Shown: positions 2,668 to 62,649 of the stretch, piece by piece
Layout: every line of letters starts with the position of its first letter
Numbering within the stretch: position 1 is the first letter of the stretch
Assembly (NCBI GenBank): GCA_004123355.1
Contig: SCHM01000004.1
Location: 4,124,316-4,188,315, forward strand
Source: Amphirosellinia nigrospora
Lineage: Eukaryota; Ascomycota; Sordariomycetes; Xylariales; Xylariaceae
DNA: 64,000 nt
Direction of reading: 5' to 3'
Position numbers and translations under genes: made by a program
Notes under the pieces: generated by a model
What the model was told of the DNA's origin: nothing
The model's input: the letters and a program-made list of their open reading frames with translations, nothing else
Databases searched by the model: none

Positions 2668-4637
2668 ATGGCGGTCGGCTTAAGCAACGGCCGCCACGCC
2701 GCCGACGAGGAAACGCGCGCCGAGGTCGACGTGCTGAATTCGCGCCTCGAGAAGACGACCCAATTGACAAAGAAGATCCAGGCCTGCCTGGGGAGGCTGG
2801 AGGCCACGGGCAAGAGTGTGCGCGACGTATCGGGCCCCCTCAATGGCGAGACCAAGCGGCTCCAAACACTAGGAAACAGTACCATAACCGCTTCAAACCT
2901 CGAACGAGGCCCTTCTGAAGCACCCAGCACGCTAACCTTGCTGTCATGCAGATATCGACGCCGTCATCGCAGCCATCGAGAAGCTACGACAGCCTGCCGA
3001 CTCCAAGGATGACGAGGAGAATATCATCCGCCAAGGGCCTGAGAAGGCCGGCCTATCCAATTACCTCAACTCCATCAAGCGCCTGAACAAAGCCCTCGAA
3101 AACATGCAGACCTCGAACCTACGAGCCAACCAACAGACGATAAGCGACCTCCAGCGCTTGGTCAAGAATGGAAACACACAGCTCGAGAGCTCGTTCGACA
3201 AGTTACTCCGAAGCGAAACCCCCCGATCTATCGAACCTCTGCACTACATCACCAAGGATCGGCCCTTCCCTCTGCTCACCCAAGACACGATATCCAAACT
3301 AAGCTTGATGAACTCCTATGTTTCGGGCAATAGCTCGTCCGACAACTCACTTGTAAAATTATACGCCGAGATTCGGGGTACATATCTATCGCAAACCTTA
3401 GTCAACCTCGCATACGCAAGTGTGAACACCGCAAAAAAAAAGAGTCCCGATGCCATCTACCGGTCAGGCACCAATGGCATTGGCATGTATGCTCAGGCAA
3501 TGGAGGGCCTCTTTGTTGCCGAGTATGAGAATATTTGCAACATTTTCATGCGGCAGGACTGGGGCCCAGCCTTCCAGACGGCCTGCCAGGCACCATTGGC
3601 GGAATTGGCGCGAACCCTTCGGGAGTTGAACAACCATATCAAAGCTCATCTGAGCACGGACTGCTACCTCGCTTACGAGGTGACAGAGATCATGTCGAGT
3701 TTATCGAGCAATCTCGACACCAGGACAGGCGAACTTAAATCAACCCTTGCTGCGGCGCTCAAACCCGTGCGCGAGACGGGCAAGATGTCGCTAGCCGAGT
3801 TGCTGGACGACACGAGACGCAAGGTTTCTACCATACAGGCCTTGCCATCTGACGGTTCACCGATGCCCGTCGTATCGGAGACGATGCAGCGTCTTCAAAC
3901 AATGGTCGACTTCCTACGTCCGATATCTAGCATTATGGTTTCATTGGGCGACGGTGGGTGGAAGTCGATCACGCCGTCCAATACGAGCACAGATGCAATA
4001 CCTAGCTTGGCATCTTTCGATGTCGGCGCAGACGGAAAAGAGATATTTGCTCACTATTGCACCGACACTATAGATATACTTATGTCAGCGCTGGAACAGA
4101 AAGCCAGACTGCTCCTAAAGGGTAAGTCCGTGTTGGGAGTCTTCTTGGCCAATAGTATCACCATCATTGAGCGAATGATCCGGGACTCCGATCTCAAACC
4201 CATCCTAGAGGGCAGACTTGGTGCTCTAGATGCCTGGCGTAAGAAAGCAAAAGCTCTCTATTCCGACTCCTGCAAGGAGGTATCCATACATCTATTTGAT
4301 GTAATCCACACGAACCGTAACAACGGCCGCCATCAGGCTCGAACGAGTCCGCCTCGATCGTCAAGTCACTAAGCAGCAAAGATAAAGACGCCATTAAAGC
4401 CAAATTTCAGACATTCAACACCAGTTTCGATGAACTAGTGACCCGCCACAAAACATATAGCATGGAACGAGAAGTGCGTCAAATGTTCGCCAAAGACACG
4501 CAGCAGATGCTCGAACCCTTTACAACCGCTTTTGGGACCGTTACCATGAGATAGACAAAGGCAGGGGCAAATATGTCAAGTACGATAAATCATCGATTGC
4601 TGCCGTTTTTCAGTCTTTATTAATATTAATACGCTAA
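2668..4637 (+). CDS. EXO70: Exocyst complex subunit Exo70
   Basis: Exo70 binds PI(4,5)P2 and Rho GTPases and helps tether secretory vesicles to the plasma membrane at growing hyphal tips. Exon 1 (2668-2878) begins [20 protein letters not shown], typical of filamentous-fungal Exo70. An intron follows (2879-2951, gtacca...tgcag), after which exon 2 continues with the coiled-coil CorEx helices ([22 protein letters not shown]) and the long Exo70 rod to [11 protein letters not shown]. The frame then appears to shift near 4318-4330, resuming as [17 protein letters not shown], and again near 4516 (MLEP to [15 protein letters not shown]). The final stretch ends [11 protein letters not shown] just before 4637. 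Each jump is explained by one missing base beside C-rich sequence, so these look like sequence errors rather than gene death. The exact stop is uncertain because homologues usually end QSLY. The start is the first ATG that gives the conserved N-terminus. Confidence 0.92.
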
Positions 4638-9860: not shown

Positions 9861-12594
9861 TTACGCGACTGTTTGACTATCCGAATAAGGGTCAACGTGG
9901 TTTCTCCATTCGAAAACCCGGTTCATACCACTGCCTGGCCCTGTAAGCCCGGCGAGCTCGGACGGCCTCGGCGGCTCCATCTGGCGATATCGTCGTCGGC
10001 CCATAGGCGCATCTACGGCGAAGTCATCCATATAAGTATGAGCGGTAGCTCTTCGGGGTAAAGAGGGCGGGGCGTAACGGGGATCGAACGGAATATCATA
10101 CATGTCATCATCCATGGTGTGACGTCGTGAGATAGGGCTCGGTATCATGGGGATTTGATGTGGTGGCGGAGGTCCATACCCAGAGGGGGCGCCGTGGGAG
10201 GAGGGACATGTTGACCGAAAGCATGAGGGTGGGGTTGAAAGGTTGTCGCTGGTCTGAGAATCTGTCTGCCAATCGTCTTTCCATTGATGAACCCCGTACG
10301 CCCCTTGCCTTCTTCACTCCGGAGACATAATTAGCACCGGATTTAGGGCGTTCAAGTGTGACAGAAGCCGGTGGTAGCGGTACAGCAGGTGGAGGAGCTG
10401 GTGGAACAATTGTGCTCTGTGATCTTCTCCGGTAATCCCATTCATAAAATGGCCAGCTGCGTTTCCCATGCCCATGCCTATGCCATTCCCATGCCCATGG
10501 CATCGCCCATGCCATGGAGATAGTCGTCATCATCATCGTTGTCGTCTTCGTCATCTTCATCGGCAGGTTGTAACCGCCGAGCTCGATTTTCGTCATGGTG
10601 TCCACGATAGTGTCGTGGCTCTTGCGGATAGGCTAAGCCAGAACGCAGGCCCCGCGCTAAACCGTCTGTACCGCCAAGGCGATCTCGGCTGACCATTGGC
10701 ACAGGTATCTCTACGTGGTTAAATCCATCTTGCTCGTTCATATCGTAGTTGAACATGGGACAGTCGCAAGCCTTCCACTTGGATCCACAAATCATACAGA
10801 ATTGAGCACCACAGCGGCTAGGCCGAATTAGAAATGTTCGTAGTTGTTGCACAGGAATGAGGAGGTGAACATACCAGGTCATATGGTTACAACCATCTTT
10901 CAACTCGACCATGGCTTGGCAGCTAAAGCAACGCTGCCAGCCCGCTTCTTTCGCTACCTTCAAGAATTGAGCTGTATCTGCGTCGGTAGGGCAATGTTTC
11001 GACTCATGCCACTTATTGTAGCATACGCCACATATCTCAGTGTCGCATTTCCTACACGTAGCACTGGTGCGGCCATTGCTGTGATGGCGGTGATCACCTG
11101 GCTGGATCCACGCTCTACATTTCGCCCTGGGGCAATAGTTGCGGTCTCTAGCGGAAAACTTGGCATATTTTTCGTTCCAGATCCTTTTGAAATCATCGTT
11201 GAACATCTCGTTGACATGCTTTAGGGTATGATGTCCGAATTACAACATCTGGGCGGCATGTTCTGGGCATCTTCGACTGAAACCTTGAAGCGTCTCTTTA
11301 GACAGGATTTACACCATCGGTGTCCACATTGAAGTTTTGTCAACTTCTTGGTTGAAACCCCATCACCACATACTATACACGCATGTCTAAAACCTTGTCA
11401 GCATAGTAATTCCTTAGTGTATAATGATAAATATCCGTGTTCAACATACATTTTGGAGCTCTTATCATAAGGTTGTGATAGAGCCGATGTCTGAAAAAAG
11501 TTCTCTAATGGTAGTTTTGACGAGGAACCCATACTATGGGATGTCACGCGCGAGGTTGAAGTCGCACGCGATCGCGAAAAAGACGGCTTCCGGAGTACGC
11601 AACATCGGAATGGTAATACTTTTTATCGACACTAGAAGCAAAACTGTCATTAAGGACATCCATGATTAATAGCATTATATCCACATACCGTTTTGGTGCA
11701 AAACCGGTGTCTTCCTCGCTATGCCGGTTGGAACGTCTTCTGTGGAGTGGGGCGCGACTTGGAGACCTTGATTGATGTGCTTGTTTGTGTCGAGACACTG
11801 ATCTTTTCACAACAACACGAGGGTGGTGAGAAATAACCTGATCCTCCTCTGAGTCATCCGTGGCACTTTCTATCTCAGGCACGATTCTGTCGCGGGATTT
11901 GTGCCTGGACCGGCTACGACTTGCGGGGTTAGCGGCGGGCTCAGAATCCGGTGTGCCATTCATGCGCTGTTTCAACGTTCGGGTGTTTTCCCGATAGTCT
12001 TGGGTACTGCCGGATGATTCATCATCAGAGTCATCGCTTGAACTCCCAGATGATGCCCCGAGTGAGGGCGCAGAAGGCGCCGAGCGTATATGGGCATAAG
12101 ATGATCTAGTCGGTGTTGGAATTGTGATTGATTCGGTCGAAGGGCTGCCCCGGACGTCGGTCGTGATTTCGCCGCCTTTGATTTGGCTCTCGACGTCGCC
12201 CTCGATCTCAGTCCCCAGGCGGAGGCAGGTCTTGATCTTGATCTCGATTGCATCCTGCCCCTCAGCCGCTCCTTCTCACTATCATCGTCGTTCTCGTCGT
12301 CATCATCTTCGTCATATACTCGCCGACCCCGGGGTTTTGGGTCGTCGGCCGGGTTAGCAGTCGCACTGGAGGCATGGAGCGGGTGTCCAGGAGGTCTTCG
12401 GCTGTCCTTGATGGCTGGGATGCGTACTTTGGCCTCCTGCGGTCGGACCTTTGTACTTCAGGCTGTCGGGTTCGATAAGGCACCGAATGACGTGACTCTT
12501 CCCGTCGTGGTTCCCAACCATGGTTTTCCGAAGCGGACATATGGCGGCGGTGTTTCTGCTGGCGCCTGCCAGGGACATGCTGTGAGTCGGCCAT
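9861..12594 (-). CDS. RBR (RING-in-between-RING) E3 ubiquitin ligase with Arg/Ser-rich N-terminus
   Basis: RBR ligases take ubiquitin from an E2 via RING1 and pass it through a RING2 cysteine to the substrate. Reading the minus strand from ATG 12594 (MADSQHVPGRRQQKHRR), there is a long RS/acidic low-complexity region. RING1 follows at about 11390-11250 (HACIVCGDG, CGHRWCKSC, PPRCC), then an IBR (CPRAKCRAW...CRKCDTEICGVC) and RING2 (CFSCQ, then GCNHMTCRCGAQFCMICG). RING2 is split by an intron at 10818-10874. The expected catalytic Cys of RING2 (the C of GCNHM) is present. Another intron probably lies at about 11393-11450. The C-terminal tail (ELAGLTGPGSGMNRVFEWRN) stops at 9861. Apparent single-base frame jumps occur near 12370, 12140, 11660, 11245 and 10500-10100. 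Neighbours suggest no operon-like link, and the substrate is unknown. Confidence 0.82.
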
Positions 12595-15250: not shown

Positions 15251-18200
15251 ATGCTCCTCCTACACCAAGTAGGCAGCGTCAAGATTGGCGAGGTTGTCCG
15301 CTACACCGTCACCTACACGCCGTCGCGTGACCGCATCCTCCCTCGCCCGAGGTCCTTCACCTACGCATCCGTAATACTTCACCACTGCCACTACGCGCAG
15401 CCTTCGTCCACGGCCCCTACACCCTGAGCGTATCCGCGTACCCCGCCCACTACAACCCTAATACGAAGTTCGAGAATCCCCGCCGCTATGGCGTCCCGGA
15501 GTTCGAGCCTATGCTCAAGGCTGCTGGCACTTGGTCTTGCCAGTTGACTGTACCGGACAACATCCGCCAGAGTGCGGGCATGGGCGCGGCAAGAGGCGAT
15601 TTTGCTCACAGCGCTGTCGAAGGATATGAAAACGTAAGCGCGAGCTGGGTTGTTGAAGTAGCTTCTCAGGTCATCTTCTCGTCTAGTGCCAGTGTTGGCT
15701 TTGAGGTATTACTTGCGCGCGATGAGAAAAGCTTAAGCTTGGGCAGCACGCCCGTCACCAAGGGACAAGCACATGTCCAACCAGCAGGGAAAGTAAGCGA
15801 CTTTCAGCAGAGCCTCGGTGCAAAAGATGGCCATCACCCAGACAATTAAAGGGCGTGTTCTCAAAAGCTATAGACCTGAAGGTTGAGGATACGGCAAGTT
15901 TGTGGAATACACCGAAACTTCCTGAATTGGAACGAATGGGATCATGGGAAAGTGAGGGCACATGGGGATGATAATGCCGTTGACAGTTTGGCCAGCCCAT
16001 CTAACCAAGGGCAGCACAAAACGCCGCCACGACCAAAAAAGATCCATCTCGTGGTCTTAACGCATGGGTTGCATAGCAATCTTGGCGCTGATATGTTATA
16101 TCTAAAAGAAAGTATTGATGCGACCGCGAGGCAAGCCAAGGTTGATGCCAAGATCAGAAAGGCCCGAGAGAGGGCTAAGAATAATACTAACCAGGTCAAC
16201 GATCAAATACAAATACCGATTACTGACGAGAATGAGAACGACGATCCTGATGAAGAAGTTATTGTACGAGGTTTTTCGGGAAATGCCACTCGGACAGAAC
16301 GAGGTATCAAGTTTCTTGGAAAACGCTTAGCACGCTATATTCTATCCATGACATACCCGGACCAGCCATTTCTCCCCACGACAAAAAAAGTTGCAGACAA
16401 TATAGCCTCTACTCTAAAAAGCGAAAATTCAAAGGCGCAGGACGCTACGGATACAAGCCATTGTGAATGGGAACGAAGATTTCAAATAACTAGCATTAGC
16501 TTGATCGGACACTCCCTTGGTGGTCTTATTCAGACTTACGCTGTCGCATACATACAGAAACATTCCCCGCAATTCTTCGATCTCATACGGCCCATCAACT
16601 TTATTGCTCTAGCTTCGCCATTCTTAGGCTTAAGTAATGAAAACCCCTTGTATGTCAAATTTGCATTGGACTTCGGTCTTGTAGGAAGGACCGGTCAAGA
16701 TGTAGGATTAACATGGAGGGCACCAACTATCGCTAGAAGTGGCTGGGGAGCAATTGTCGGTACTCTCGGGGAGAGTGCACATAAAAAGGTCATAGGCGAA
16801 TCACAGCCAGAGTCGAAGCCATTGCTAAGAATATTACCAACTGGGCCAGCGCATGTGGCTTTGAAAAAGTTTCGTAACCGGACCGTCTACTCCAACGTGG
16901 TAAATGATGGCATTGTGCCTCTACGGACAAGTTGTTTGCTATTCCTTGACTGGCAAGGCCTTGACCGGGTAGAAAAAGCACGGCGAGAAGCCGGGCTGAT
17001 GGAAACCGTTGTTGGGTTTGGATGGGCCGAATTAACCGGTACTAGCATGTCCACCCGAAAAGGGCCCTGGACTCCAGATGCAGACGCAGAAGAAGAGACA
17101 TCATCTCCACCCACGCCTGGTTCTATACCAGGAAGTTCCCATGGTGACTCTCATGAGGTGCCCCAGCCTGATAGTAATGCCACCGGTGGACGATGACAGA
17201 CAGAGTCTGAACCTTGCAATTCCTCCAAGGCATCATGAACCAGGGCCTGGTCAGAGCGGATACACGACCAATGATTCTCCGTTTTCTGGTTTCTTCAATT
17301 TGTTTAAAGGAAATCATCATTCTAAGACTCAAAACTCAAGTTCAACACCACATCGATCTCACGGAGAAAACAAAATCTATAAACGGAGCCAAACTTTGAA
17401 CTTTGACGAAACAGGGACAGACTCAACATCGTCAAGTAAAACAAAGGTTTCTTCAGGCCATGAACTTGATGACGACCAGAGCAATAGGATGTCCACACCA
17501 CCTCGTACAACATTCTTCGAATCTGCCGGCGATCTTCTCAACCCAAAACTACCCACTGTGGACTTCTTACTTGATCCTTCAAAGCGTCCTCGAACGATAT
17601 TCCATGATCGAATTTACCACCCAGCAGATATCCCTCCACCGCCATTGAAAAAACGTGCAACTGGTACTTCGATGCTTCGCAGGAGGACTACCAACCGTGC
17701 CGGTACTTTATCACCAAAGAGCGGAAGTAGCGTGGAAAAATCGTCCTCGGAAACACCAAAGTTGGTGTGAAACATCAAGACTCGGCGCTCTCTACTTATG
17801 ACTATGATGACCGTTTGCATACGGATCCTGAGAGACAGCCAGACGAGATAATTGACAGTTCTAGTATGAGGGTTGAGGAGAAAATTGCGAGAGCCTACCA
17901 CCGTGATCTCAGTTGGCGAAAGGTCCTCGTCAATATAGAACCAGATGCGCACAACAACATCATAGTACGCCGGACGTTCGCTAATGCTTTCGGATGGCCT
18001 GTTGTGAAGCATCTGGTTGATGCTCATTTCAGTGATGATGCCACTGCTCGCACGCGAGACGACGACGAAAACAACGTTGAACGTGCAAAGCCAATGGATA
18101 AGGGACCAGACGAGACAGGTACCGAAACAAAAGAAATCAGCCAACAGGAAAGCTCCGTCACCCCCGATAACGCGAGTAGACAGCCTCAAAATACTGGCAA

Positions 18201-37384: not shown

Positions 37385-38194
37385 TTAGCGAGTCGATAGA
37401 AGGTACCTTAGGCAAGTACCTTAGGTAGTAGGTGAGGGAAACGCCAAGCGCAAGGCGTGCCGGGGCAGAGCTCAGGCGGAGACCGACGAGTTACAAACTT
37501 GCAGGTACCTGGATGCACTGTGCTCCTGAATAGGTAGTCCCCTGTAATACCATGTAGCGACGTACCTATGCAGCCTGCCTACCAGGTAATGCCTGTGGTG
37601 TGCCGCAGGGTGCTGAAGTACCTCCCCTCCCCCAACAGCCCCCCTACACCCTACGCTACACCCCAGTATCCCCCAGCGAGGAGTGTGTCCGGGCCCACGC
37701 CTTTTTTTTAGAGGGCTTGACCTCTGACCACCATGTCTTCCCGCATGCCTCCTTTAAAACTCATCAATACCCCCATCTGCCCGCAGATGCTTTCCCCTCT
37801 CCAAATCTTCGGCCATACTTCACACCAAAAAAAAAATTTAACAAGCCTTGCGACCACCGTTCCCCAGATTCCAGGCGGATAAACATTAACGCCAGCTCTT
37901 ATTAGTCGATCAGCACCAACGACACAACAACACACACGGCCACAACATTAAATTACATCGACATTCTCTCGTCAACACACTTGGCCAGCTTCGCCCTAGA
38001 GGATTTCCGAAATAAGTGATAGGATTTATGCGCAACTCGAAGGCCGGGTCTTTACTCACTGTTGGACCGAATTCCTATTTGGTGCACCATCTAAAAACAA
38101 ATCAAGTCAGGCCATTCACCACTATCACCACTCTAGGATCTACCGCAGCTATCCCAAGGCAACGGATACTAGTGCCCTCTTGGCTGGTGATCAC

Positions 38195-39420
38195 ATGCAA
38201 CGCTCACAGTCGGCGGTGGATTTTTCCAACCTTTTGAATCCTGAAGCCACCACGATATCGACCGACAAGAAGGACACTGACGGGGACATCACTATGGCCT
38301 CTGTGAGTGTGATCCGACCCAATGGGCCTTTACCACCAGGTGGCCAACCTGCCGAAACCGCAAATGAACTGCCGCGACCCTACAAGTGCCCCTTGTGTGA
38401 TAAGGCCTTCCACCGGTTGGAACACCAAACAAGACATATTAGGACGCATACAGGCGAAAAGCCGCACGCCTGCACATTCCCCGGCTGCACCAAGAAATTT
38501 TCCCGTTCAGATGAGCTCACCCGGCACTCGAGAATACACAACAACCCGAACTCGAGGCGAGGTAACAAGGCTGGCCAAGCTACACACCATGTACTCAGCC
38601 ACGCTCTGTCGCCCGAATCCATGATGCCGCCTCCTGTGTCGGGGCCCCGGAGTATCAAATCGGCCCCTAATTCTACCATCGTGTCACCCAATGTGTCGCC
38701 GCCACATTCCTATTCTGCATTTGCTGTACCACATCACAGTCCTATGCACCATTACGCGAGGGGCATGACCGGCAATAGCCCATTGCCTGTACCTAATGGG
38801 GAGCTGGGTATCCTGGCAAATGCTGCACATCAACTAGAGCACGAGGGTCTATCACCCAACAACTCTAGACCACAGTATTATTCCCACAGCCACCATAACT
38901 CACGTAACCATCTTCCTTCTCTTTCTGCATATCACATGTCTCGCTCGCATTCGGGCGAGGATAATCGAGATGATCATTATTCGTCTGCTCGCCTTGCGAA
39001 GCGATCGCGACCCAACTCGCCTAATTCAACTGCTCCATCTTCCCCGACCTTTTCGCATGATTCTCTGTCGCCCACGCCCGACCATACACCACTGGCTACC
39101 CCTGCTCATTCGCCACGCCTTCGCCCTATGCCGGCATTGAATTGCCTACGCTACGAAATCTAACACTGGGCCATACACCGGCCCTCGCACCCATGGAACC
39201 GCATCTGGAAGGTTCAGGTTTCCAGTCGACGCTTCAAACAACCGCTGGCGCCCGGACGCCAGGCTTGTCGCTAACCGATATCATCAGCCGACCCGACAGG
39301 AGCAGGAAATTACCGGTGCCCCAGGTGCCTAAAGTAGCGGTGCATGATCTGCTCTCCCATGACACTTTCAACGCCAGTGGTCGGAGTTCAACCAGCGGCA
39401 GTATTACTGGGGGCGACTAA
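38195..39420 (+). CDS. cre1: Carbon catabolite repressor CRE1/CreA, C2H2 zinc-finger
   Basis: This nuclear repressor shuts off genes for alternative carbon use and cell-wall-degrading enzymes when glucose is present. ATG 38195 gives [18 protein letters not shown], the conserved start in sordariomycete CRE1; an upstream in-frame ATG at 38180 is less likely. Two C2H2 fingers follow ([20 protein letters not shown] and [20 protein letters not shown]), identical in the base-reading residues to known CreA. After them come [36 protein letters not shown] and the diagnostic block [20 protein letters not shown]. Near 39128-39135 the frame jumps by one base (LRPM to [20 protein letters not shown]), then runs to TAA 39418-39420. 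Restored, the length is about 408 aa, normal for the family. No intron is seen. Confidence 0.95.
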
Positions 39421-55216: not shown

Positions 55217-57900
<2,684 letters not shown>

Positions 57901-58681
57901 GATGCCTCGAATTTTTGTCGACGACGAGCCTATGAGGTCTGTATGTAGGAGTCGGGAGGCTGAATTTGTCGGCTGATGGTATATTTTGTCACTTCCAAAC
58001 TCCGAACTGGGATGTGGGCGGCGAGAAGAGTTGTGATGCTGGATTGGCACGAGGCGGGAGGCGGTAGGTAGGTGGGGTGGCCAGCAAATGTTAGGTTGCA
58101 CAATGATCAAAAGGGGATACGCGTCTCGTCGCGTGAATCGCGACAGCTAAAGTAGACTAGTGGAATCAATTAAAATGCCTGCTTAGGAAATCTCTCTCGC
58201 CGAATATCTCCGAGCCTAGGGTACCTGCAACAGGTACGAAGTGGGGTTCTAGTTCTGCTGTAGGTGGGCTACCTACCTAAGTTACAGCGAGTCCCGGGCA
58301 ATAAAATGCCTGACTCACCCGAAGAAGTTAACAATCGAGTCACATATGCGGTACGATTCTCTTCAGCCCAGGTTGATTTCGCCTTGTGAATCATAATGGC
58401 TCAACTGGAACTGTCTTAGCCTTACGACCAACCAGCCGCCTTGCTTTGCTAACGCCTTTGAGCTTGTGTGCATAGCATCCAATTAAGTTTTAAACTGGTC
58501 CCGTTCTTACACGATGTGGAAGATTTTATCTAGATTTTCATAAAACTTAATTGAATTTTTATTTCACTTCGATTCATCTGTGCCTTGTCTGCTTGATAGC
58601 TACATAACCCGTCATTTGCTTGATATCGTCTCTAGCCTTTTGCTTAATATTCACCTCATTATCCCATACAGCAATCCAGCC
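57901..58681. other. Divergent promoter region, MCM3 / RNA end-processing gene
   Basis: These 781 bp separate the MCM3 start (minus) from the start of the multidomain RNA gene (plus), so the two genes share this upstream DNA. It contains an ACGCGT box at 58119, a nearby CGTCGCGTGA, and CTACCTACC words at about 58265-58280. Confidence 0.55.
58119..58124. promoter_or_regulatory. MluI cell-cycle box ACGCGT upstream of MCM3
   Basis: ACGCGT is the core recognised by MBF/DSC1-type factors (Swi6-Mbp1 in fungi), which drive G1/S genes including MCMs. This copy is about 219 bp upstream of the MCM3 ATG, with a second CGCG core (gtcgcgtga) a few bases away. The position and target gene fit; binding is inferred. 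Confidence 0.5.
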
Positions 58682-61600
58682 ATGGCGAACGAGGAGAATT
58701 CATCGCGACCTACGACAGTGCCCATTGATTCCTATGATACGGCCTTATGTATAATCCCTCCAAAGCACCTTTGGCTTCCCTTGACCGTCTGCGATCACTA
58801 TATGATAAAGCTTATGAGAAATGGCCGCCTCACATCAACCTCGTCTATCCATTTGTTCGCGTCGAAGACCTGCCAGGGGCTTCCGCATCGGTGGCATCTA
58901 AGTTGAGCTCGACCTCTGAAGATGCTGCGGCCCCATCGAATAGTGTCGAGATTTGCCTCAATGCAACCGATGTATTGCTCATACACGCGACAACACCATT
59001 TTCATCCATGATAATGATGAAGAGCGAACATCAAGACTTCGAGATTTGCGACAGACCGTCTTAGGAGCGATCGGTCAAATGTCAGCAACAAACATCGCAT
59101 GCACATGACGGTCGGACAAAGCCAAGACCTCAATGCATCTTCTCACAAGTATCTCTTAGAAAAGGCATCTATGTTGCACCCGCAGAGTGGACGGTTGACA
59201 AGCTATATATTTTGATTCGAAGGCGTATGGAAATTGATGGCGACGCCTTCAGCCGGATGAGAGTATGGGGACTAGTGAGTACCTAACGTCACCAACGTTG
59301 CTCTTCTTTCCAGCTCCACCCTGCTCCCAAGCTCTACGATCTCGACATCATGCTAATAGACCAAAATTGCTGACTCTTCATGTTGAAGTTGACCTCACTA
59401 CATTTTCATTGTTCAAGGCAGACTTATCCGAGCACCTCAATGAGGATGATGAGGTGCTGATTCCACCTCAGACGCGGTATCAAAATCCCCAGGAGAATGT
59501 AGCTCTCTTGTAAACAACCCATTACTTTTTCGGATGAACGAAAGTGGGCTCTTTTATAAGCCTTCTACACCTACACCTGGAGAAGGCGAGCTCAGCTCTT
59601 TAACGATCGCGAGTTACAACGTTTTAGCGGAGTTCCACTACCCTCTTCGAAAGCCAGATATCCACTTATTGTTCAGAATATCTTACAGAAGCCAATTTTG
59701 ACCGACGTTTTAGTCTTGCAGGAAGTTACTGACGATTTTCTGTCATTTATCTGTCAGAATGATGGTATTCGTGAACACTATCGATTTGTCAGTATGGGCC
59801 TCCCGACCAAGACGATATCGAACCACTTCCAAGCCACCTAAATGTCGTAGTATTTAGCAGATGGGCTTTCTCTTGGAGTTGGCTGTCATTTAACAGACGC
59901 CATAAAGGTTCCATCATCGTGAAGTTCACAGATATTGGAAAGCACGACAATGGAGTTTTTATCCCAACCATCCTATCGACCGTCCATTTAACCTGTGGGC
60001 TAACCGATGCTCCGTTTCGTCGAAGAAGTCGGAGCTTCAAACTTTAATCGCTCATCTATCTAAAAACTATCCACGGAATTCGTGGATTCTTGCTGGCGAC
60101 TTTAAATTACTACTAGCATTTATACGATCGAAGCAGCATTCAGGAAGAAAACTATCTCATCGCAAACAGTAGCATATCTGAAAGGGCTTGAGAACACACT
60201 TGCTAAAGCTGGGCTAGTGGACACCTGGACGTCCGCTCGAGTCCAGTACGGCGACTTGATGGATTCTGAACAAGATTTGAACGTCAAACGGAGACGTTCG
60301 AAGGAGAACAAGGAGCAACATTCGATCCCACAGTCAACGATTTAGCTGCGGAAATTGTCGGTATGGTTTAATAATAGGCCCCAGAGATATGACGGATACT
60401 TGTGAAAGGAGAGGACTTTCATGTGTCCGGCTTCACTATGTTTGGGCGAAGACCAGGCCATCTGCATGAAAGCACTACGGAAAACGCGAACGACTCGAAG
60501 ACGCGTCAAAGATTAAACTATCGTATGCTAGCGATCACTGGGGGGTCAGGTGCTCCCTAAAAATGCATCAACCTGGAGACAATATTTCAGCTGAGAATAC
60601 TTCCAAGCTTTCCGTGCCGGTATACGTTAAACCAGCCTTAAGTTCTCTAGACCATGTTTCGGAACTCAAGGATTGCCTCAACGAGTTAAACATATATTCC
60701 TTCCGAGGTAGATGCTACGAGACGAAAAGCTGCCTTGGAACTGTTGAAGAGTGTGGTCATAGAGAACGATGCCATCACAGCCCGGGACAGCCACTTTTGT
60801 TCTTGTCCCAGTTGGGTCGTATGGTCTCGGCGTTTGGACAGCGTCATCGGATATTGACTGTCTTTGCATTGGCCTATCAGTGCTAAAACCTTCTTTACCC
60901 TGGTTACCCAAAGGATTCGCAAGACCGAGAATCGAGGAATCAAACTCCGGAGGAGAGTGAATGCTCACTCTGGTACTATGCTTGAGCTCGAGGTATTGGA
61001 CGTCAAGATGGACCTGCAATACTGTCCATCAACTATCATTGCTGATACTTGGCCACATGCAATGAAGCTACCGGCTACTGATCCCATATTCGCATTACCA
61101 ACTCAAACGTTGACGAAGTTAAAACCGGCAAGGGATATGTACTATTCTGCGAACAATTCCTGACTATGCCGCTTTTCGAACTGCTTACCATTTCATTAGA
61201 CATTGGGCAAAACAGCGCGGTATTTACTCTGCCAAATTTGGCATGTTAAGTGGAATACAGATCTCGATTCTATTATCCCGAGTGTGCAAGCTGTTGTCAC
61301 AAGAGGGAACAGCTGTTGCCTTGCCTTCTATCCTAACAACTTTCTTTCACCACTACGCAAATTTTGATTGGAGTACACAGCTGGTATTCGACCCATTCTT
61401 TCACAAGCAACTTCGGTACGTCCGTACCGGCAGAGAACCGCTGGCGATCCTAGGATTCCATCCTCCCAGTCTGAACACGGCTCTCAATGCATCTCTGCCT
61501 TCCGTAAGAACGATCTCCAACGAGTTCAAGCGAGCAAATAGGCTCTTATCGCAAGATGGAATGACTTGGAACACGTTCTTGAACACTACACTGGAGGGGT

Positions 61601-62649
61601 CTGTAGAATTTTTGTCGGGGTTTAAAACTTTCATCAAGATTGATGCTCAATTTTGGGGTGTTTCACTAGCAAAGGGCAGCAGCTTTGTCGGTTGGTTGGA
61701 ATCTAGGTGCACAATGCTTTTAGTTGGTAAGTTCTGATCTCATCCCAATGCACTAAGGGAATGCTCATGCAATTCTAGATATCAACCGGCGTCTTCCTAA
61801 CATTCATGCCCAAATTTGGCCTGCCCGGTTCATTAATGAAGGTGTTTCCGAAGATGAGACAGATTACCAAGGCTATTATCTGATCGGCTTAGATAAGTGG
61901 GAGGTTCTAGTGAAGAGCCCATGTCCAGGGATGACATGAAGACAACACTAGGTTCGTTGCATGCTGCACTACAAAAATTCGAAGGACAAATCCGCGGCGA
62001 TGAGAAATATTTCGATTCGAACACCTCCTGGATGAGCGCATCGTTGGTCAACCGATCAGAGCTTGGGATATTGCGGCTTGATAGCCGTGACTGGGGCGAG
62101 TACACAGTCGGCGACGATGGCTTTGATGAAGATGAGGAAGAGGAGATAATCGACTCTGATGACGAGGCCCACAGTGGTCCAGAACCGATGGCAGGCAAAT
62201 CAAAATCTAAGAAAGGAACAACTGCGCAGCCGCCTGCGCTCCCAACATACAGCGGCAAGTTTCGCTCTTCAGCTGATGTTATTAACAGAATACGCTGGGA
62301 CCCAAATATGGACAGCGGCGATTACATTGTCGGCTACGAAGATCGATTCTTGGGGGCCAAAGAGAGGCCACTTGATGCATGGAAGTCAGAACAAACCGAC
62401 GAAGAATTCATCCCTCAACATCGAATTCTGTATTTCAAGCGGAAGAGTGATGGGATTGTTGTGTGGGACCGTAAGGAACGGCGGGATACTGTTTTGGGAG
62501 CGGGATCAGCAGCATCAATGACGATTAAACGGGCAGCGGCGTTTCAACCGCGTTCTCTGCAGAGGCTCGATAATATTCTAGGTCTAGAGTCAAGAAAATT
62601 CGGTAAAGCGGTGAAAAATTCCTTGGATACTATATCGTACCGGAAATAA
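58682..62649 (+). CDS. Multidomain RNA end-processing protein: 2H phosphoesterase, EEP nuclease, poly(A)-polymerase-like NTase, MJ1316/DUF504
   Basis: Four RNA-end enzymes or binders appear in one fungal gene starting MANEENSSRPTTVPIDSYDT. First is a 2H (LigT/AKAP7-like) phosphoesterase with HINLVYPFV (about 58830) and HMTVGQS (about 59100). Second is an endonuclease/exonuclease/phosphatase domain (about 59600-60560) with LTIASYNVLAEFHYP, VLVLQEVTDDF, STVHLT, ILAGDF and the catalytic SDHWGV. Third is a poly(A)-polymerase-like nucleotidyltransferase with PVGSYGLGVWTASSDIDCL (about 60800-60860), a third Asp in DVKMDLQYCP, and the helical central domain (FIRHWAKQRGIYS, FGMLSGIQISILL). Last is an MJ1316/DUF504 domain (INRIRWDP, YIVGYEDRF, RILYFKRKSDGIVVWDR; about 62270-62510). 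An intron lies near 61731-61779, after LLV; another is likely near 59275-59311. About ten one-base frame jumps occur. By family, the parts would open, trim, rebuild and recognise 2',3'-cyclic or damaged RNA ends. Confidence 0.85.

What the first reader, a model, noticed from the sequence alone, without database searches (positions are those of the whole stretch)
58682..62649. Fungal four-domain RNA end-processing protein (2H + EEP + PAP-like + MJ1316)
Seen: HINLVYPFV/HMTVGQS (2H phosphoesterase), SDHWGV and VLQEVT (EEP), SDIDCL plus a later catalytic-type Asp (nucleotidyltransferase), and INRIRWDP/YIVGYEDRF (MJ1316/DUF504) in order on one strand within 4 kb. Known: the MJ1316 domain is proposed to recognise RNA 2',3'-cyclic or processed ends, and 2H enzymes open or make 2',3'-cyclic phosphate or 2'-5' linkages. 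Inference: a one-protein RNA repair or tagging machine that opens a damaged end, trims it and adds nucleotides. The architecture has been noted in comparative genomics as far as I recall, but it is not characterised biochemically to my knowledge.
Basis: partly seen in the sequence, partly recalled or inferred. Interest (0 to 1): 0.85.

Follow-up and report, generated by a model that had tools for sequence, protein, structure and literature searches.

The report
Four-enzyme RNA end-repair fusion protein
A fungal gene encodes one large protein that appears to join four RNA-end-handling parts (an end sensor, two phosphate-removing enzymes and a tail-adding enzyme), and some bacteria carry the same four parts in a different order, a few of them next to an RNA ligase, which points to repair or tagging of cut RNA.

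Summary
Window 58682-62649 (+) carries, in order, a 2H-like module, an EEP module, a poly(A)-polymerase module (nucleotidyltransferase plus central domain) and an MJ1316 domain. MJ1316, PAP_central and 2H pass Pfam cut-offs on single frame pieces. Frameshift-tolerant profiles of bacterial homologues find all four modules far above controls. The frame breaks about 19 times, but the neighbouring MCM helicase gene is broken at comparable density, and RNA-polymerase and chaperonin genes are broken too. Assembly errors are likelier than decay.

The main new evidence is bacterial. Single ORFs in one cyanobacterium, three actinobacteria and six of 13 Myxococcota MJ1316 loci hold the same four modules, permuted to MJ1316-EEP-2H-PAP. 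In 3 of 3 of these actinobacterial loci an RNA ligase-kinase gene overlaps the start codon. In one other locus MJ1316 is fused to RtcA beside RtcB. The bacterial EEPs are nearest TDP2, not ANGEL2/CCR4; their PAPs are of canonical eukaryotic type. Best reading: a one-polypeptide machine that recognises, cleans and re-extends RNA 3' ends. The chemistry is inferred, not shown. Related MJ1316 fusions are already in print.

The parts
58682..62649 (+). whole gene: 2H-like, EEP, PAP (NTase + central), MJ1316; about 1,276 codons in 22 frame segments
   Evidence: codon model scores the chosen frame highest in 21 of 21 hand-cut pieces, though two of these score below the non-coding model and its free decoder left 59500-60864 (or 59839-60698 at a looser cost) as non-coding
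58742..59223 (+). 2H phosphoesterase-like module; HINL and HMTV motifs in different frames
   Evidence: PF13563 E 4.1e-11 for the first part; bacterial 2H profile 69.9 bits, control max 12.9 in 86 tiles, model 1-154 of 172
59275..59313 (+). candidate intron (39 bp, GTGAGT...CAG, CTAAC branch-like); frame kept across it
   Evidence: read from sequence; unusually short, not confirmed
59588..60574 (+). EEP module, of TDP2 type by its bacterial relatives: SYNVL, LQEV, TVHL, GDF, SDHWG
   Evidence: bacterial EEP profile 73.9 bits, control max 11.8; general EEP profile 15.5-20.6 bits; TDP2 best in PDB for the bacterial relatives
60702..61139 (+). nucleotidyltransferase palm: GSYGLGV...SDIDCLCI and third Asp in VKMDLQY
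   Evidence: PF01909 E 4.1e-4; bacterial PAP profile path
61138..61590 (+). poly(A) polymerase central domain
   Evidence: PF04928 E 1.2e-14; bacterial PAP profile, 94.9 bits over NTase plus central domain
61727..61778 (+). intron (52 bp, GTAAGT...CTAAG...TTCTAG), explains one frame change
   Evidence: read from sequence; inference
61779..62256 (+). PAP C-terminal/RNA-binding-like stretch (one frame break) and acidic linker
   Evidence: PAP RNA-binding likeness by eye only; no Pfam hit
62257..62487 (+). MJ1316 (DUF504) domain
   Evidence: PF04457 E 2.5e-21, 76.6 bits against cut-off 26.3; only match found in the genome

Best explanation
The gene encodes a single multidomain enzyme that resets damaged or nuclease-cut RNA 3' ends. 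Proposed order: the MJ1316 domain holds an RNA ending in a 2',3'-cyclic phosphate or a related end; the 2H-like module opens the ring to a phosphomonoester; the TDP2-type EEP removes the remaining phosphate or terminal adduct to leave a 3'-OH; the canonical-type poly(A) polymerase module adds nucleotides. The product is then ligated, restored or tagged. Shown here: the four modules, their catalytic residues except one that falls on a frame break and the Thr/Ser of the first 2H motif, fusion of the same four in bacteria in permuted order, and an RNA ligase-kinase gene overlapping the actinobacterial versions. Inferred: substrate, reaction order, and repair rather than decay as the outcome.
For: All four modules were found against controls. 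The same four lie in one ORF in Calothrix, in two Embleya and one Nonomuraea, and in 6 of 13 Myxococcota MJ1316 loci. An RNA ligase-kinase gene, open in all three, overlaps the start codon in 3 of 3 actinobacterial four-module loci (Pfam PF09414 and PF13671 on Nonomuraea; the Embleya copies by tblastn). MJ1316 is fused to RtcA next to RtcB in one locus. The bacterial EEPs are nearest TDP2, which also acts on a protein-RNA bond (PMC4055861 passages). The bacterial PAPs are nearest canonical PAPs, E 4.5e-55. 2H enzymes can open cyclic phosphates, e.g. yeast Usb1 (PMC5591277 passages). [quoted passage not shown] RtcB was not searched in this genome).
Against: No biochemistry on this protein in anything I could read. 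The first 2H motif is HxN, also in 7 of 10 bacterial relatives with a 2H module, so ring opening is not assured. TDP2 is best known for 5' tyrosyl adducts (recalled), not 3' phosphates. The ligase-kinase gene was not found at the Calothrix or Myxococcota loci. Two Myxococcota relatives lack the 2H module. Asn of GDFN cannot be read because a frame break falls there. Bacterial genome context does not show what the fungal protein does.
Confidence: 0.6

Rival explanations
1. A decayed pseudogene: the frame breaks are real mutations and the fungus no longer makes the protein.
For: About 19 frame breaks in 3.97 kb, 16 of them in the first 2.1 kb. In nine chaperonin-family genes I count by hand, from the coordinates, at least nine breaks in about 12.7 kb, some of the genes having none; this locus is denser than that average.
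Against: The adjacent MCM helicase gene (about 55324-57809, -) is broken at comparable density: its P-loop domain is spread over five overlapping Pfam pieces in three frames within about 0.66 kb, at least four frame changes. An RNA polymerase second-subunit gene has five breaks in 1.06 kb. No in-frame stop in the 22 chosen segments (choosing the segments favours this). Catalytic residues are kept apart from the Asn lost at a break.
Confidence: 0.08
2. RNA tagging for decay: the protein cleans cut RNA ends so that the PAP module can add a tail that marks them for exonucleases, with no re-ligation.
For: Canonical-type PAP module (bacterial relatives); ligase gene not found at Calothrix and Myxococcota loci, nor a significant match in the fungal window.
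Against: Overlapping RNA ligase-kinase gene in 3 of 3 actinobacterial four-module loci; MJ1316-RtcA beside RtcB in one locus.
Confidence: 0.25
3. Oligonucleotide signalling: the nucleotidyltransferase makes a 2'-5' or cyclic oligonucleotide and the 2H/EEP modules degrade it.
For: Weak matches of the PAP module of two of the bacterial proteins scanned to oligonucleotide-cyclase profiles; 2H and EEP families include 2'-5' phosphodiesterases (PDE12 appears as an EEP relative; its activity and the 2H cases are recalled).
Against: Those matches are far below cut-off (32 bits against 200); canonical PAPs match over most of the module at E 4.5e-55; MJ1316 is found with RtcA/RtcB.
Confidence: 0.07

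Closest known systems
MJ1316-domain RNA-repair fusions (Burroughs and Aravind 2016, not seen; cited in PMC6514570)
   Same: MJ1316 joined to RNA end-processing enzymes
   Different: I could not check whether this exact four-module set, the bacterial permutation or the ligase-kinase link was described there
Bacterial four-module protein, e.g. Calothrix brevissima BAY66805.1 (annotated thpR_2)
   Same: MJ1316, TDP2-type EEP, 2H-like and canonical-type PAP in one polypeptide; HINL first 2H motif
   Different: module order MJ1316-EEP-2H-PAP instead of 2H-EEP-PAP-MJ1316
Tyrosyl-DNA phosphodiesterase 2
   Same: best PDB match of the bacterial EEP modules (E 3.5e-21); SDHWG also in the TDP2 chain shown
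   Different: fused to 2H, PAP and MJ1316; substrate unknown
ANGEL2 (CCR4-type EEP, 2',3'-cyclic phosphatase)
   Same: EEP superfamily; the activity one would expect here
   Different: different EEP branch; CCR4-type matches are much weaker (E 2.3e-6) and ANGEL2 itself is not among the matches listed
Canonical poly(A) polymerases (Pap1, PAPgamma)
   Same: NTase plus PAP_central, aligned over most of the bacterial module
   Different: embedded in a repair fusion; the genome has a separate ordinary PAP at C1:7245379
Trl1 / T4 Rnl-Pnkp style heal-and-seal systems (recalled)
   Same: phosphoesterase, kinase and ligase activities combined, if the actinobacterial gene pair works as such
   Different: here a polymerase and an end-sensor domain are part of the healing protein

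Membership tests
MJ1316 (PF04457) | profile match over curated cut-off | tested here: met
   76.6 bits against 26.3
MJ1316 (PF04457) | binding of RNA 2',3'-cyclic ends | not testable with these tools
   stated in the literature (PMC6514570 passages)
2H phosphoesterases | profile match over cut-off | tested here: met
   PF13563 43.6 bits against 27 on part of the module; 69.9 bits with bacterial relatives' profile
2H phosphoesterases | two H-x-T/S-x motifs (definition from PMC5434554 passages) | tested here: not met
   second motif HMTV fits, first is HINL (H-x-N); same variant in 7 of 10 bacterial relatives. Hence called 2H-like here
EEP superfamily | full-length profile match in order | tested here: met
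   model 1-257 of 257 at 59588-60574; general profile model 4-261 only at the loosest of three frameshift costs
EEP superfamily | catalytic N/E/H/D-N/D-H set | tested here: inconclusive
   all readable except Asn of GDFN, which falls on a frame break; set recalled
TDP2 | closest EEP branch | tested here: met
   for five bacterial relatives (A2): E 3.5e-21; next other types are beta-hemolysin 7.9e-11 and CCR4 2.3e-6. Not run on the fungal EEP, which is in pieces
Canonical poly(A) polymerase | GS-DxD...D palm and PAP_central | tested here: met
Canonical poly(A) polymerase | ATP-specific tail addition | not testable with these tools
   none
Four-module end-processing proteins (bacterial set found here) | all four modules in one polypeptide | tested here: met
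   in the fungus the single polypeptide is inferred across frame breaks

The most novel reading that the evidence does not exclude
A conserved, movable one-polypeptide RNA 3'-end resetting machine is shared by fungi and scattered bacteria. It uses a TDP2-type EEP as end-cleaner and a eukaryote-type poly(A) polymerase to rebuild the end, and in actinobacteria it feeds a co-encoded RNA ligase-kinase. That would be an untemplated 'clean, extend, seal' RNA repair pathway unlike plain heal-and-seal systems.
Probability: 0.3. Interest if true: 0.85.

Novelty: new member of a known kind. Interest (0 to 1): 0.6.

Why it matters
How fungi deal with RNAs left with 2',3'-cyclic ends after nuclease attack is, to my knowledge, largely open; [quoted passage not shown] A protein with sensor, two phosphoesterases and a polymerase, and open bacterial versions that can be expressed at once, makes the question testable. 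The permuted bacterial forms and the overlapping ligase-kinase gene are comparative evidence that the modules act together on RNA ends.

Tried and rejected
Pfam and PDB searches of single EEP pieces gave nothing. A strict frameshift-tolerant EEP scan failed (9.2 bits against control maximum 10.3 in 112 segments); looser costs and better profiles succeeded. The general EEP profile is weak: a true EEP of this genome (L037) scored 12.8, below the highest random tile at the loosest cost (13.2). A first hexamer decoder called 57806-61896 non-coding; the second left the EEP region largely non-coding. Pattern searches for MJ1316, 2H and the bacterial alignment in viral contigs, and for MJ1316 in genome contigs, confirmed no relatives; phage records gave none. 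MJ1316 was in 0 of 400 genomes of the phylum of G009, whose locus is titled Anaerolineaceae, and in 0 of 4 genomes of other loci. I first expected an ANGEL2-like EEP; one search argued against it. The PAP comparison used a wrong frame and is void; one search repeats it and does not settle whether the fungal PAP is nearer to the bacterial set or to the genome's own PAP (best 44 identities over 139 residues, and 27 over 83). In one search one control tile out-scored the window for PAP (145.7 bits); traces it to L021 at the genome's own canonical PAP, the next tile scoring 17.9.

Literature: MJ1316 occurs in 2 papers of the library, one relevant. A search for LENG9, DUF504 and two related terms gave 42 papers; of the 30 listed none holds DUF504 and none bears on this architecture by title. 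Searches gave background only, seen as listings. So these searches showed no description of the architecture, but the key 2016 paper is not held. Papers were seen as passages only.
Full report
What is there. The window lies at G000:C6:4124316-4188315 of a 48.1-Mb genome in 11 contigs. Its CCR4 gene is nearest to a PDB chain named glucose-repressible alcohol dehydrogenase transcriptional effector, i.e. yeast CCR4 by recall, which fits a fungus; the species is not known.

Domains on separate frame pieces. Pfam gives 2H (PF13563, E 4.1e-11), PAP_central (E 1.2e-14) and MJ1316 (E 2.5e-21), and NTP_transf_2 at its cut-off (E 4.1e-4). EEP is not found by Pfam in any piece nor at this locus by a whole-genome PF03372 search, which found five other places. 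MJ1316 and PF13563 each have one match in the genome, here. PAP_central matches this gene and an ordinary PAP on contig 1.

EEP test. Five EEP motifs in order with bounded spacing occur once in the window and in 0 of 200 window shuffles and 0 of 2000 region shuffles. The patterns were written with the window in view, so I built an independent test: 29 EEP sequences (27 from eight bacterial genomes, two from this genome) were made into a profile and aligned to DNA allowing frameshifts. Three of 32 sequences were dropped for lacking the motifs; two others that lack them by the same regex (L144, L145) were kept. A strict cost failed (9.2 bits, control maximum 10.3 in 112 segments). With three looser costs the region scored 20.6, 17.0 and 15.5 bits, against control maxima of 13.2, 12.1 and 12.1 in 224 genome tiles and 9.4 in 82 window tiles; the path covered model 4-261 at the loosest cost and only model 4-44 at the other two. 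Three EEP genes of this genome scored 12.8, 14.5-19.0 and 31.0 in the same test, so its power is modest. With the bacterial four-module EEPs (below) the score was 73.9 bits, control maximum 11.8 in 86 tiles.

Frame breaks. The gene falls into 22 hand-chosen segments without internal stop, 1,276 codons; of 21 junctions two are intron-like (59275-59313, 61727-61778), leaving about 19 frame breaks, 16 of them before position 60770. A codon model trained on other parts of the window and genome gives the chosen frame the best of three scores in 21 of 21 hand-cut pieces; two pieces still score below non-coding, and its free decoder did not call the EEP region coding. The breaks are very probably assembly errors. 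The neighbouring divergent gene is an MCM helicase subunit. All ten pieces scanned match MCM-family domains, two of them weakly, and the P-loop domain alone is split over five overlapping pieces in three frames within about 0.66 kb, at least four frame changes. One RNA polymerase second-largest subunit gene shows five breaks in 1.06 kb, another two (my count from coordinates). Nine chaperonin-family genes show at least nine breaks in about 12.7 kb, counted by hand; several have none. Such genes are essential in fungi (established knowledge), so decay is not needed to explain the breaks. The 5' half of the finding is denser in breaks than the chaperonin average; the MCM gene shows that this corner of the contig is poor.

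Bacterial relatives. The 2H piece and the MJ1316 piece were searched apart against 72,556 plasmid records. They hit 12 and 8 records; five are common to both, with the two hits within about 1.4 kb. The 2H matches alone are not significant (E 0.5 or worse); the MJ1316 ones are for the best hits (7e-9). Calothrix brevissima NIES-22 plasmid2 holds one ORF of 991 residues, annotated thpR_2: MJ1316 1-67, EEP 137-375, 2H 425-576, PAP_NTPase 640-714, PAP_central 752-888, all over cut-off. Embleya sp. NBC_00896, Embleya sp. NBC_00888 and Nonomuraea gerenzanensis have MJ1316, EEP, 2H and PAP_central over cut-off in one ORF; the palm is weak or unlisted by Pfam there, but GS, DxD and the third Asp are invariant in the alignment. 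Two Streptomyces plasmids carry an ORF with MJ1316 plus 2H only, a third one MJ1316 with a cut-short 2H. The eighth record (E 4) was not followed.

In Myxococcota (taken to be the phylum of G010, from a locus titled Myxococcales) MJ1316 matched in 14 of 377 genomes, 15 places, 13 of them over cut-off. All 13 were fetched and scanned: six carry MJ1316, EEP, 2H and PAP_central in that order (PAP_central over cut-off in four, below it in two); two carry MJ1316-EEP-PAP without 2H; two are RtcA proteins (one with MJ1316 by Pfam, one only); three show no further domain. The two places under the cut-off were not followed. In 400 genomes of the phylum of G009 there was none. The distribution is patchy.

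Same family. Profiles of the bacterial modules align along the fungal DNA: MJ1316 74.1 bits (control maximum 14.5), EEP 73.9 (11.8), 2H 69.9 (12.9), PAP 94.9, in 86 control tiles each. For PAP one control tile scored higher (145.7); it is the genome's own canonical PAP, and the next tile scored 17.9. The order of frames found largely agrees with my hand reading. The EEP score rises from about 20 to 74 bits when the general profile is replaced by the four-module one, so this EEP belongs with that set. The module order differs (2H-EEP-PAP-MJ1316 in the fungus, MJ1316-EEP-2H-PAP in bacteria); survival of the set under rearrangement argues that the modules work together (inference).

What kind of parts. 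A profile of five bacterial EEP modules matches TDP2 best in the PDB (E 3.5e-21); beta-hemolysin follows at 7.9e-11 and CCR4 type at 2.3e-6. A profile of five bacterial PAP modules matches canonical eukaryotic PAPs (E 4.5e-55) far better than non-canonical ones (1.1e-7); PF04928 was not found in the 14 named prokaryote control genomes. The first 2H motif is H-x-N in the window and in 7 of the 10 bacterial relatives with a 2H module, against the textbook H-x-T/S (PMC5434554 passages).

Context. In all three actinobacterial four-module loci the gene directly upstream encodes an RNA ligase with a kinase-like AAA_33 domain; Pfam was run on Nonomuraea, the two Embleya copies were found by tblastn. 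All three are open, and their stop codon overlaps the start codon of the four-module gene. tblastn did not find the ligase at the Calothrix or Myxococcota loci. In Myxococcota G356 RtcB lies just upstream of MJ1316-RtcA. Of 17 flanking ORFs scanned with Pfam these two, the Nonomuraea ligase and RtcB, have a repair link and 15 do not; two of the 15 (L156, L161) were other-frame ORFs over the Embleya ligase genes.

Mechanism. Reported for relatives: 2H enzymes can open 2',3'-cyclic phosphates (yeast Usb1, PMC5591277 passages); EEP enzymes include a cyclic phosphatase (ANGEL2, PMC9525292 and PMC13247085 passages) and TDP2, which also cuts a protein-RNA bond (PMC4055861 passages). MJ1316 is described as recognising cyclic ends (PMC6514570 passages). 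Inference: recognise, open, clean, extend. Whether the extended RNA is sealed or destroyed is open; the overlapping ligase-kinase gene favours sealing in actinobacteria.

Verdict. A real, probably functional, conserved multi-enzyme RNA end-processing protein. Related MJ1316 fusions are in print, so I class it as a new member of a known kind; the four-module set may already be in Burroughs and Aravind 2016, which I could not read.

Noticed in passing
window 55324-57809 (-): An MCM replicative helicase subunit gene lies divergent to the finding and is heavily frame-broken, which marks this part of the assembly as poor.
   Followed up: yes
L157:2010-3995, L156:2262-3995, L161:2208-3992: RNA ligase plus kinase-like protein (662-codon frame in Nonomuraea) whose stop codon overlaps the start of the four-module gene in three actinobacteria.
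   Followed up: partly
L188:2896-5826: Myxococcota rtc-like gene pair: RtcB followed by an MJ1316-RtcA fusion.
   Followed up: partly
L158 and L159 (3977-4900 and 3977-4855): Streptomyces plasmids carry a minimal MJ1316 plus 2H protein of about 300 residues.
   Followed up: no
L182:4318-6729, L183:4301-6682: Myxococcota MJ1316-EEP-PAP proteins without the 2H module, so the 2H step may be dispensable or supplied elsewhere.
   Followed up: no
window 2936-4369 (+), 10478-11239 (-), 15880-17193 (+), 38000-39160 (+): Other genes: exocyst Exo70, an IBR-type protein, a DUF676 esterase, and a C2H2 zinc-finger protein that looks like a CreA-type repressor (last name recalled).
   Followed up: partly
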